NCBI RefSeq assembly: GCF_012844225.1
Contig: NZ_JABAGQ010000014.1
Coordinates: forward strand, 1 to 64,000
Direction of reading: 5' to 3'
From: Rhodococcus sp. 105337
GTDB taxonomy: Bacteria > Actinomycetota > Actinomycetes > Mycobacteriales > Mycobacteriaceae
DNA length: 64,000 nucleotides
Below the pieces are notes generated by a model that was given only the letters and a program-made list of their open reading frames with translations, ran no database searches and was not told where the DNA came from. Numbering within the stretch: the stretch's first letter is position 1; each line of letters begins with the position of its first letter. Made by a program: the position numbers and the translations under genes. This document shows positions 15,722 through 20,148 of the stretch, piece by piece.

Positions 15722-16723
15722 TCAGGACCGGCCTCGCCGGGCACGGTGCGCGTCGAACGTGTCGCCGGCGCCGACGGACGCACACAGGCGGCGGATCGCG
15801 CTGCAGTCCTGTACCACCGGTTGGTGCGCGGTCGCCGCGGCGGTGTCCGCGATCAGTTCCCGGCCGCCGGGGACCTGTTCGTGCGCGACGATCGCCGCCC
15901 AGGTGGTCATGTCGCCGCCGGTGAAGGCATCGACCCCGGCGGCGAGCGCGTCGAACAACAACTCACGGTCTGCGGCGTCCAGTTCGGTGAACACCGTGGT
16001 GAACAATTCCCCGGTGAGGGTGGCGTGGCACAGTTCGTCGCGCCGGTGGACCGCGACGGTGGCCCGGTTGACCGGTTGCACGGTCTCGTCGCCGGTGAAC
16101 AGCGCGAGATACGCGCTGATCGACGTCTCGGCGACCGTGGTGAACGCCAGTTGCACCAGCGCCGCGTGCCGCGGATCGACGGCGCGCTGCAACTCCGCGC
16201 GGTGTGCGCGCAGGGTGCGGCACGCGGGGAGCACCGCGTCGGGCAATGCCCAGCCACGCCCGCGGCGGGTGAGCGCATTGGCGTTCTGGTGCATGAGGGT
16301 GTGGTACTGCTCGTCGACCATCGCCTGCATCACCCCGACGACCACGGTGTCCGGCGGAGCGAGACCGAACACGTCGGAGGTGATCAGCCCGAAACCGGGA
16401 TTGACCACGTACTGCTCGATGTCGATGACGTTCTTGTTGTAGGCGATCCACCCCCACGCCCGCAGCCGCGCGCGGGCGGGCTCGTCGAGTGCGAGGTACC
16501 GGGGATGGGTGTGGAACGGCAGCAGGGTGTCGGGGAAATCGTCGCGCGCGGGTTCGAACAGCGCATCCAGGTCGGGTTCGGATTTCTTCACCGCGGCGCG
16601 CCGCGGCCACGACCGGGTCAGGCCGCGAATCACCGCGGCGGCGACCGGGTCGCCGGTGTCGTGGCCGGGAAGCTCCGGGGGCCGCAACCGGGCCCGCAGC
16701 TTCGCGGCGTCGCGATCGGTCAT
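15722..16723 (-). CDS. AurF/CmlI-type diiron arylamine N-oxygenase
   Basis: A 333-residue non-haem diiron N-oxygenase of the AurF family, which oxidises aryl amines to hydroxylamine and nitro groups (AurF on p-aminobenzoate; CmlI on an arylamine in chloramphenicol synthesis). All seven iron ligands expected from AurF can be placed: E103, E138, H141, E199, H226, E230 and H233. Their spacings (35, 3, 58, 27, 4, 3) are nearly those I recall for AurF (E101, E136, H139, E196, H223, E227, H230). ATG 16723 overlaps the stop of the papC-like gene, making it the last gene of a four-gene operon that produces an aryl-amine amino acid precursor. N-oxygenation of p-aminophenylalanine or a derivative is therefore the leading hypothesis; PABA is the alternative substrate. 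Confidence 0.88.
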   Translation of the reverse strand: MTDRDAAKLRARLRPPELPGHDTGDPVAAAVIRGLTRSWPRRAAVKKSEPDLDALFEPARDDFPDTLLPFHTHPRYLALDEPARARLRAWGWIAYNKNVIDIEQYVVNPGFGLITSDVFGLAPPDTVVVGVMQAMVDEQYHTLMHQNANALTRRGRGWALPDAVLPACRTLRAHRAELQRAVDPRHAALVQLAFTTVAETSISAYLALFTGDETVQPVNRATVAVHRRDELCHATLTGELFTTVFTELDAADRELLFDALAAGVDAFTGGDMTTWAAIVAHEQVPGGRELIADTAAATAHQPVVQDCSAIRRLCASVGAGDTFDAHRARRGRS

Positions 16724-17646
16724 GGCGACACCCCGTTTCGCACGGCGTCCGGTGCGTGCAGGTCCGACGGGAGCAGGCCGAACAGTTCCCCGCACAGTGC
16801 CCGGTACTGCTCGCGGTCGTCGCCGAGGGCGCGGTAGCCGCGTGCGGTCAGCGCCGCGAACCGGTCGGGGTCCTCGGCCGCGTCGAGGTCGTCCAGGGCG
16901 GCGCGCAGGGCGCGGCGGGCGTCCGCGGCGTACGGATTGGCCACCTGGATCTCGTGATACACCGCCGGTGTGCCGGACGCGATCCGGGCGAGCAGTGCCC
17001 GCAGCAGCACGTGCGGCGGGGGAGCGGCGGTCGCGGCCGTCGGTGGTCCCAGCCGGTCGAGGGCACCGCCGAAAGCGAGAACCACCGCGTGGGTCAGCGC
17101 CTGAGTGGTCGCCGTCGCGCGGTCGTGCTCGGCGGCGCCGACCTCCACGACCCGCGCACCCCAGCGGCCTACCGCGTCGACGAACGCCCCGACTGCGGGG
17201 CCGTCCCGGTGCCGCACCGCGAGTACGGGGCGCCCGGCCCAGCCGAGCGCCGGAGCGAACATCGGATTGATACCGAGCGCCTCCCGGTCCGGCAGGCCGG
17301 TACCCAGCGCCGCAGCGAACGGGGTTTTCACCGACAACGTCTCTACCAGCAGCGCCTCGGGGCGCAGCAACCCGGCCAGGGCGGGCAGCGCGGCCACGGC
17401 GACGGCGTCGGGGACGGCGAGGATCACCGTCGGCGCCGCGCGCACCGCCGCCGCGACGTCCGGGGTGGGCGCGGCGATGTCACCGGGCAGCACCGCGGCG
17501 CCGGCTGTGCCGGTCGTCGGGGCCGGAGCGCCGGGGTCGATCGCCAGCACGCGGTGGCCGTCGCCGGACAGGGCCGCGGTGAGCATCGCGCCGACCGCAC
17601 CGCAGCCCCCCGCCACGACGACGCGGCCTGGTCCGCCGGCGGTCAC
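16720..17646 (-). CDS. papC: Prephenate dehydrogenase family protein, probable 4-amino-4-deoxyprephenate dehydrogenase (PapC type)
   Basis: A 308-residue TyrA-like dehydrogenase. An N-terminal NAD-binding Rossmann fold begins RVVVAGGCGAVGAMLTAAL, followed by the helix-rich TyrA domain (about residues 150-290) with the prephenate-type ALGINPMFAP segment and a conserved histidine near VYHEIQ. Wedged between an ADC synthase and an N-oxygenase, it most probably oxidises and decarboxylates 4-amino-4-deoxyprephenate to p-aminophenylpyruvate, as PapC does in pristinamycin synthesis. A normal prephenate dehydrogenase cannot be excluded from the protein alone. It starts at GTG 17646 (GTGA overlap with papA) and its stop overlaps the aurF start. 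Confidence 0.85.
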   Translation of the reverse strand: MTAGGPGRVVVAGGCGAVGAMLTAALSGDGHRVLAIDPGAPAPTTGTAGAAVLPGDIAAPTPDVAAAVRAAPTVILAVPDAVAVAALPALAGLLRPEALLVETLSVKTPFAAALGTGLPDREALGINPMFAPALGWAGRPVLAVRHRDGPAVGAFVDAVGRWGARVVEVGAAEHDRATATTQALTHAVVLAFGGALDRLGPPTAATAAPPPHVLLRALLARIASGTPAVYHEIQVANPYAADARRALRAALDDLDAAEDPDRFAALTARGYRALGDDREQYRALCGELFGLLPSDLHAPDAVRNGVSP

Positions 17647-19766: not shown

Positions 19767-19773
19767 GGCGGCC

Positions 19774-20148
19774 TCAGATCTGGGGGTCCCCGGAGCGCGC
19801 CGGGCGCGGACCGGTGTCGGCGCCCGCGGCGGCGACGATGTCGTCTTCGAGCCGGCAGGCTTCTCCGATGAGCAGGGTGTAGAGCGCTTCGACGAAGTCG
19901 CCGGACAGTCCATTACGGTGCGCGTAGTCCTGGGCTCGGCGATGCACAGCCTGCATCCGGCCGGGTTGGAGCACCGCGATGTTGTGGCGCCGTTTGATTT
20001 CCGCGACGCGGGCGCAGAGCGCCAGCCGGTCGCGGACGTCGTCGAGCAGTGCGCGGTCGACTCGGTCGAGTTCGGTGCGCAGAGCGTCGAGTTCGGTTTC
20101 CGGTGTCGGTGCGGTCGTCGTATCCGCCGCGGTATGCCTGTCGTTCAC
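19774..20148 (-). CDS. papB: AroQ-class chorismate mutase, probable 4-amino-4-deoxychorismate mutase (PapB type)
   Basis: A 124-residue all-helical AroQ chorismate mutase. The first helix, LDALRTELDRVDRALLDDV, is followed by the arginine/lysine pair in RDRLALCARVAEIKRRHN, the typical VLQPGRMQAVHRRA segment, and a last helix with LYTLLIGEACRLEDD. It rearranges chorismate to prephenate or, in this context, aminodeoxychorismate to aminodeoxyprephenate as PapB does. It is the first gene of papB-papA-papC-aurF, starting at GTG 20148 behind a modest GGGGTGAG. The promoter must lie in the 200-bp less GC-rich stretch upstream (20150-20348), separated from rbpA by a hairpin. Confidence 0.87.
   Translation of the reverse strand: MNDRHTAADTTTAPTPETELDALRTELDRVDRALLDDVRDRLALCARVAEIKRRHNIAVLQPGRMQAVHRRAQDYAHRNGLSGDFVEALYTLLIGEACRLEDDIVAAAGADTGPRPARSGDPQI

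What the first reader, a model, noticed from the sequence alone, without database searches (positions are those of the whole stretch)
15722..20148. papB-papA-papC-aurF operon: predicted route to p-aminophenylalanine plus N-oxygenation
Seen: four tightly overlapping genes encode ADC synthase with the PabB-type PIKGT motif, an AroQ mutase, a TyrA-like dehydrogenase and an AurF-family oxygenase with all seven iron ligands in place. Known: PapA/B/C make p-aminophenylpyruvate in pristinamycin, and the same step set feeds chloramphenicol and obafluorin; CmlI/AurF oxidise aryl amines to nitro groups. Inference: the organism makes p-aminophenylalanine, possibly p-nitrophenylalanine, for a peptide. The rhodococcal producer of corynecins (chloramphenicol relatives) makes such chemistry plausible in this group. 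I know of no description of this exact operon.
Basis: partly seen in the sequence, partly recalled or inferred. Interest (0 to 1): 0.88.

Follow-up and report, generated by a model that had tools for sequence, protein, structure and literature searches.

The report
Rhodococcal aminophenylalanine and N-oxygenase operon
Four linked genes in a Rhodococcus look able to make the rare amino acid p-aminophenylalanine and to oxidise its amino group, and they stay beside large peptide-making enzymes across rhodococci, including (by inference) the one whose predicted product inspired the synthetic antibiotic humimycin, so the natural peptides may carry amino- or nitro-aromatic building blocks that nobody has included.

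Summary
The operon is real: chorismate mutase, fused glutaminase-aminodeoxychorismate synthase (ADCS), TyrA-like dehydrogenase and AurF/CmlI-type oxygenase, with two 4-nt overlaps and one 7-nt gap. All four resemble an authentic chloramphenicol cluster (54, 51, 41 and 43% identity for ADCS, TyrA, mutase, oxygenase). A tree puts the TyrA with CmlC and the corynecin enzyme, apart from housekeeping TyrA (100/100). The catalytic HPM motif is NPM, and the mutase shares CmlD's unusual residues. PabB, PabA and PabC candidates lie elsewhere. This supports p-aminophenylalanine plus N-oxidation. CmlA and CmlP are absent, so it is not a chloramphenicol or corynecin cluster.

New here: the operon occurs across most Rhodococcus clades, and 57 of 59 informative Rhodococcus-group loci have NRPS sequence within about 10 kb. 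In this window it is a six-module NRPS (X-Ser-X-D-Thr-X-X, thioesterase). In Prescottella equi the intact operon abuts a seven-module NRPS that I infer to be IupU, the humimycin A synthetase. Which module, if any, uses the unusual amino acid is unresolved: no adenylation code matches CmlP. New variant of a known pathway; product unknown.

The parts
19774..20148 (-). AroQ-type chorismate mutase family protein, PapB/CmlD-like (predicted 4-amino-4-deoxychorismate mutase)
   Evidence: PF01817 and TIGR01803; 41% to CmlD, 44% to corynecin-type mutase; R11/R28/K39/R51 kept, D48Q, E52M, Q88E as in CmlD
17643..19766 (-). fused glutamine amidotransferase-aminodeoxychorismate synthase, PapA/CmlB-like
   Evidence: TIGR00553 over cut-off, GATase; 54% to CmlB, 56% to corynecin-type PabB; PIKGT and CLGHQ; the only fused copy found in the genome
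16720..17646 (-). TyrA-like dehydrogenase, PapC/CmlC-like (predicted 4-amino-4-deoxyprephenate dehydrogenase); GTG start overlaps ADCS stop by 4 nt
   Evidence: weak PDH_N/PDH_C; 51% over 220 aa to CmlC; 100/100 clade with CmlC apart from housekeeping TyrA; NPMF in place of HPM
15722..16723 (-). AurF/CmlI-family diiron N-oxygenase; ATG overlaps the TyrA stop by 4 nt
   Evidence: PF11583; 43% to CmlI; seven ligands invariant
22309..44493 (+). six-module NRPS, predicted partner: Cstarter-A1-T-C-A2(Ser)-T-C-A3-T-C-A4(Thr)-T-E-C-A5-T-C-A6-T-TE; likely start ATG near 22435
   Evidence: domains; adenylation codes; conserved beside the operon in same-genus genomes
20348..20386 (-). 18-bp perfect stem, terminator-like, between rbpA and the operon, so the operon probably has its own promoter between here and 20148
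   Evidence: 4 terminator-like sites found, 2.9 expected by chance; this one has by far the longest stem
20409..20747 (-). rbpA, housekeeping flank
   Evidence: PF13397
13200..15700 (+). Lnt-type N-acyltransferase and GT2 (polyprenol-phosphate mannosyltransferase-like) genes, housekeeping flank; an amidohydrolase precedes them at about 12241-13281
   Evidence: PF20154/PF00795 and PF00535; amidohydrolase and Lnt homologous to the P. equi flank

Best explanation
The operon is a dedicated branch from chorismate. The fused ADCS makes 4-amino-4-deoxychorismate, the mutase turns it into 4-amino-4-deoxyprephenate, and the TyrA-like enzyme oxidises and decarboxylates it to p-aminophenylpyruvate. A general aminotransferase from elsewhere in the genome gives p-aminophenylalanine. 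The CmlI-type oxygenase then oxidises the aryl amine, most likely to the nitro group, either on the free amino acid or on a peptide. The resulting residue is most likely used by the neighbouring NRPS to build an N-acylated hexapeptide of the type X-Ser-X-D-Thr-X-X released by a thioesterase. Shown here by sequence: gene content, catalytic-residue pattern, clade membership and conserved linkage to NRPSs. Inferred: substrate identity, extent of N-oxidation, timing, and incorporation by this NRPS.
For: Identity to a real chloramphenicol cluster and to the corynecin-type cluster on the Rhodococcus H-CA8f plasmid; TyrA tree; shared catalytic-position changes in mutase and TyrA; separate housekeeping TyrA, PabB-like, PabA-like and PabC-like genes; iron ligands; NRPS sequence within about 10 kb in 57 of 59 informative Rhodococcus-group loci; the linkage recurs with different NRPSs; in Rhodococcoides the operon is split and each half sits beside an NRPS.
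Against: None of the six adenylation codes resembles the CmlP code DASMECAVCK or is one I know for p-aminophenylalanine, and the A-domain tree does not single out one module shared by all operon-linked NRPSs. In Gordonia (0 of 5) no NRPS lies within 10 kb. The operon's oxygenase clade is distinct from CmlI, so its substrate and degree of oxidation may differ. No chemistry is available. Much of the linkage may be common descent at one locus.
Confidence: 0.66

Rival explanations
1. The operon makes p-aminophenylalanine or a nitro derivative as a free product, or for another pathway in trans; its position beside the NRPS is historical.
For: Gordonia and one Antrihabitans keep the genes without an NRPS within 10 kb; no adenylation code points to p-aminophenylalanine; in an R. 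erythropolis-group strain a humimycin-type NRPS at the same locus has no operon beside it.
Against: NRPS linkage in 57 of 59 Rhodococcus-group loci, and where the operon or its halves moved they lie beside another NRPS in the loci read.
Confidence: 0.24
2. A chloramphenicol or corynecin cluster: p-nitrophenylserinol made by CmlA hydroxylation and CmlP release, with the big NRPS irrelevant.
For: Same four precursor and oxygenase genes; corynecins are reported from Rhodococcus (PMC10819586), and antiSMASH gives a 40% corynecin hit in a Prescottella (PMC10972888).
Against: No CmlA homologue in the window or in any of 23 assembled operon loci; no A-T-reductase CmlP; no second fused ADCS or CmlI-clade gene in the genome. 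A corynecin-type cluster is a separate gene set on the H-CA8f plasmid, and its oxygenase falls in another clade.
Confidence: 0.04
3. The operon is an extra PABA/folate or ordinary aromatic amino acid route, with the oxygenase acting on PABA as in aureothin.
For: ADCS also feeds PABA; AurF oxidises PABA (general knowledge).
Against: Mutase and TyrA are in the same operon and have no place in PABA synthesis; they carry CmlD/CmlC-type residues; PabC-like and PabB-like genes are elsewhere; the oxygenase is closer to CmlI than to AurF.
Confidence: 0.04

Closest known systems
Chloramphenicol cluster cmlB/cmlC/cmlD/cmlI (S. pseudovenezuelae copy read here)
   Same: Same four activities; 54, 51, 41 and 43% identity; same residue changes in mutase and dehydrogenase
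   Different: No CmlA beta-hydroxylase, no A-T-reductase CmlP, a multimodular NRPS instead; oxygenase in a separate clade; gene order differs (mutase first)
Corynecin-type cluster of Rhodococcus sp. H-CA8f plasmid NZ_CP023721
   Same: ADCS, TyrA-like, mutase and CmlI-like genes in the same group of bacteria (56, 43, 44, 41% identity)
   Different: It carries a CmlA-like MBL-fold protein, an AMP-binding protein, DAHP synthase and chloramphenicol efflux; the window's genome has no such second set
Pristinamycin papA/papB/papC and obafluorin p-aminophenylalanine genes
   Same: Same route to p-aminophenylpyruvate (from general knowledge)
   Different: Sequences not compared here; pristinamycin methylates the amine and does not N-oxidise it
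Humimycin A (IupU) NRPS of R. equi
   Same: In P. equi the operon lies directly beside a seven-module NRPS with Ser2, Thr5 and E domains after modules 3 and 5, inferred to be IupU; the window NRPS is its relative (53% over the C-terminal half in a Prescottella locus)
   Different: The window NRPS has six modules and lacks the DALF-type A domains of modules 1 and 3; humimycin itself was synthesised from prediction and contains Tyr/Phe, no amino- or nitro-phenylalanine

Membership tests
p-aminophenylalanine (pap/cml) pathway | ADCS rather than anthranilate synthase signature | tested here: met
   TIGR00553 over cut-off, PIKGT in 35 of 35
p-aminophenylalanine (pap/cml) pathway | dehydrogenase of the CmlC/PapC clade, not housekeeping TyrA | tested here: met
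   100/100 split; NPM motif. PapC itself was not in the tree
p-aminophenylalanine (pap/cml) pathway | mutase of the CmlD/PapB type | tested here: met
   TIGR01803 over cut-off; residue changes shared with CmlD. PapB itself not compared
p-aminophenylalanine (pap/cml) pathway | enzymes act on 4-amino-4-deoxychorismate and 4-amino-4-deoxyprephenate | not testable with these tools
   needs enzyme assay
AurF/CmlI arylamine N-oxygenases | seven iron ligands including the third histidine | tested here: met
   EEHEHEH in all operon members
AurF/CmlI arylamine N-oxygenases | oxidation of an aryl amine to nitro | not testable with these tools
   the CmlI-like Dob3 oxidises a hydrazone instead (PMC13061610), so family alone does not fix the reaction
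chloramphenicol/corynecin clusters | CmlA beta-hydroxylase | tested here: not met
   no hit in the window or in 23 operon loci
chloramphenicol/corynecin clusters | single-module A-T-reductase NRPS (CmlP) | tested here: not met
   only a six-module NRPS with thioesterase
humimycin-type NRPS | seven modules, Ser2, Thr5, E after modules 3 and 5 | tested here: not met
   window NRPS has six modules, Ser2, Thr4, one E; related but not a member

The most novel reading that the evidence does not exclude
The natural peptides of the rhodococcal humimycin-type synthetases carry p-amino- or p-nitrophenylalanine (or a partly oxidised form), so that the synthetic humimycins, in which these positions were read as Tyr, Phe or Val, differ from what the bacteria really make.
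Probability: 0.33. Interest if true: 0.8.

Novelty: new variant of a known kind. Interest (0 to 1): 0.62.

Why it matters
Nitro-aromatic natural products are rare, and this would be an amino- or nitro-aryl peptide family spread across nearly a whole genus, in strains already in culture. It gives a concrete, testable correction to structure predictions for rhodococcal peptides, including (if the IupU assignment holds) the humimycins, whose activity against the lipid II flippase has been studied only on predicted structures. It also supplies a distinct clade of aryl-amine oxygenases for biocatalysis.

Tried and rejected
(1) Identifying the p-aminophenylalanine module by adenylation code: the CmlP code DASMECAVCK matches none; the A-domain tree gives no module common to all operon-linked NRPSs. 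(2) The idea that 'Tyr' modules 1 and 3 of humimycin are the p-aminophenylalanine sites: possible, but the window NRPS has no A domain in that clade, and an R. erythropolis-group strain has the same kind of codes with no operon beside them. (3) Corynecin/chloramphenicol reading: rejected for lack of CmlA and CmlP. (4) That the second seven-module NRPS of P. equi (contig C12) is the humimycin A one: disfavoured because module 2 reads as Thr. (5) Literature: the original humimycin paper is not held, and no held paper was found that links Rhodococcus NRPSs to amino- or nitrophenylalanine. (6) A first TyrA tree came out without housekeeping rows and was redone. (7) Co-occurrence of the window's starter C domain with the oxygenase across the family was uninformative, because most genomes hold several related starter domains. 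(8) The first structure search with an A domain was out of frame and is ignored.

Full report
OBSERVATION. The four genes are present on the minus strand: chorismate mutase 20148-19774, fused glutaminase-ADCS 19766-17643, TyrA-like 17646-16720 and AurF-like 16723-15722. Two junctions are 4-nt stop/start overlaps and one is a 7-nt gap, so translation is probably coupled. An 18-bp perfect stem with a T-rich tail separates rbpA from the operon, so the operon probably has its own promoter; the simple sigma-70 scan found none.

PATHWAY. A chloramphenicol cluster was reached through S. pseudovenezuelae, whose genome holds a protein 96% identical to the solved structure 5hyg. That 5hyg is CmlI is from my own knowledge; the PDB copy calls it uncharacterized. 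Against this cluster the window proteins score 54% (ADCS/CmlB), 51% over 220 aa (TyrA/CmlC), 41% (mutase/CmlD) and 43% (oxygenase/CmlI). A maximum-likelihood tree separates operon TyrA proteins, CmlC and the corynecin-type enzyme from 13 housekeeping TyrA proteins with 100/100 support; the genome's own TyrA is on contig C4. In the operon enzymes the HPM motif of TyrA is NPM wherever the pattern located it, and also in CmlC (the pattern missed a few rows, and in L038 it matched an unrelated site). The roles of these residues near the C4 substituent are my knowledge, not tested. The genome has separate PabB-like, TrpE-like, PabA/TrpG-like and PabC/IlvE-like genes, so the fused ADCS looks like an extra, dedicated copy.

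OXYGENASE. It has all seven ligands and is nearer CmlI than AurF. In a tree the operon oxygenases form a clade of their own (92/96) next to a clade holding CmlI, the corynecin-type enzyme and AurF (AurF sits on a long branch). CmlI-like Dob3 of Nocardia oxidises a hydrazone (PMC13061610), so a nitro product is likely but not certain. The genome's two other AurF-family proteins are distant.

DISTRIBUTION. In 301 genomes of the family, 96 have a homologue at E of 1e-20 or better, in 7 of 31 genera, including every listed same-genus genome but one, and that one is only 75% complete; some of these matches are second copies. A scan with named genomes finds the operon in R. coprophilus, ruber, aetherivorans, zopfii, the opacus and erythropolis groups, Prescottella, Antrihabitans and Gordonia, its two halves in Rhodococcoides, and related oxygenases in some Streptomyces and one Nocardia. 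In the window's genus the operon lies between the Lnt/GT2 genes and rbpA with the NRPS beyond. The same amidohydrolase-Lnt flank is beside the NRPS in Prescottella and related strains, which points to one ancestral locus.

NRPS LINKAGE. Of 59 Rhodococcus-group loci with enough sequence, 57 have NRPS sequence within about 10 kb; Gordonia has 0 of 5 (counted by me). The NRPSs differ: six modules here; seven in Prescottella and the R. oryzae/maanshanensis group; other sets in the opacus and erythropolis groups. In Rhodococcoides the operon is split: mutase and ADCS are beside a humimycin-like NRPS next to rbpA, TyrA and oxygenase beside another NRPS. The linkage therefore survived rearrangement, although descent from one locus explains part of it.

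HUMIMYCIN. Humimycin A is Tyr-Ser-D-Tyr-Phe-D-Thr-Val-Val (PMC12024397), predicted from IupU of R. [quoted passage not shown] In P. equi DSM 20307 the NRPS beside the intact operon has seven modules, Ser2, Thr5 and E domains after modules 3 and 5, and is preceded by an amidohydrolase, an Lnt-type N-acyltransferase and MbtH. A FecCD permease pair lies 27 kb away, as expected from IupU REQ23810 and iupABC REQ24080-100 (PMC2947987). The other seven-module NRPS reads as Thr at module 2. I therefore infer that this NRPS is IupU; strain 103S itself was not available. In a strain of the erythropolis group a seven-module NRPS of the same code pattern sits at the same locus without the operon, which is elsewhere in that genome.

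WHAT IS NOT SETTLED. Window codes: A1 DAFFTAAIVK, A2 DVWHFSLVDK (Ser), A3 DAFFVAGIEK, A4 DFWNIGMVHK (Thr), A5 DAFFAGGVMK, A6 DAFFLAAIMK; the Ser and Thr readings rest on codes I know. CmlP reads DASMECAVCK. No module can be assigned to p-aminophenylalanine, and window A1, A3 and A6 group with module 7 of the Prescottella NRPS, not with its modules 1 and 3. N-acylation is inferred from the starter-type C domain. Whether the residue is incorporated as amine or nitro is open.

PRIOR KNOWLEDGE. A genus-wide survey lists conserved NRPS families of unknown product (NRPS-2, PMC5550956) without mentioning these genes, and antiSMASH gives a 40% corynecin match in a Prescottella (PMC10972888), plausibly these four genes. 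The corynecin-type cluster on the H-CA8f plasmid is a different gene set. I found no held paper describing this operon with an NRPS; the library lacks most subscription journals.

Noticed in passing
L210, L211, L213 and L053, L058, L070, L073: In Rhodococcoides the operon is split into mutase-ADCS and TyrA-oxygenase halves, each beside a different NRPS.
   Followed up: partly
L254 (NZ_CP023721.1 227775-256683): A corynecin-type cml cluster with CmlA-like and AMP-binding genes and chloramphenicol efflux lies on a plasmid of Rhodococcus sp. H-CA8f.
   Followed up: partly
G051:C1:2382027-2382970 (L065 9528-10468): In one same-genus genome the oxygenase gene is in two overlapping pieces in different frames, so it may be broken there.
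   Followed up: no
L212: The R. wratislaviensis-group genome has a second fused ADCS directly before another NRPS, without mutase, TyrA or oxygenase.
   Followed up: no
L120, L124, L137, L161, L169, L172, L154: Streptomyces and Nocardia loci pair a CmlI-like oxygenase with a fused ADCS but show no mutase or CmlC-like hit nearby: a possible separate PABA-derived N-oxidation pathway.
   Followed up: no
window 22480-24438: The first condensation region of the NRPS looks longer than one domain, with a second partial C-lobe; P. equi shows the same (two hits at G039:C4:265354-267456).
   Followed up: no
L063, L069: Some large-genome strains carry a second CmlI-like oxygenase (43-45% identical) not linked to the operon.
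   Followed up: no
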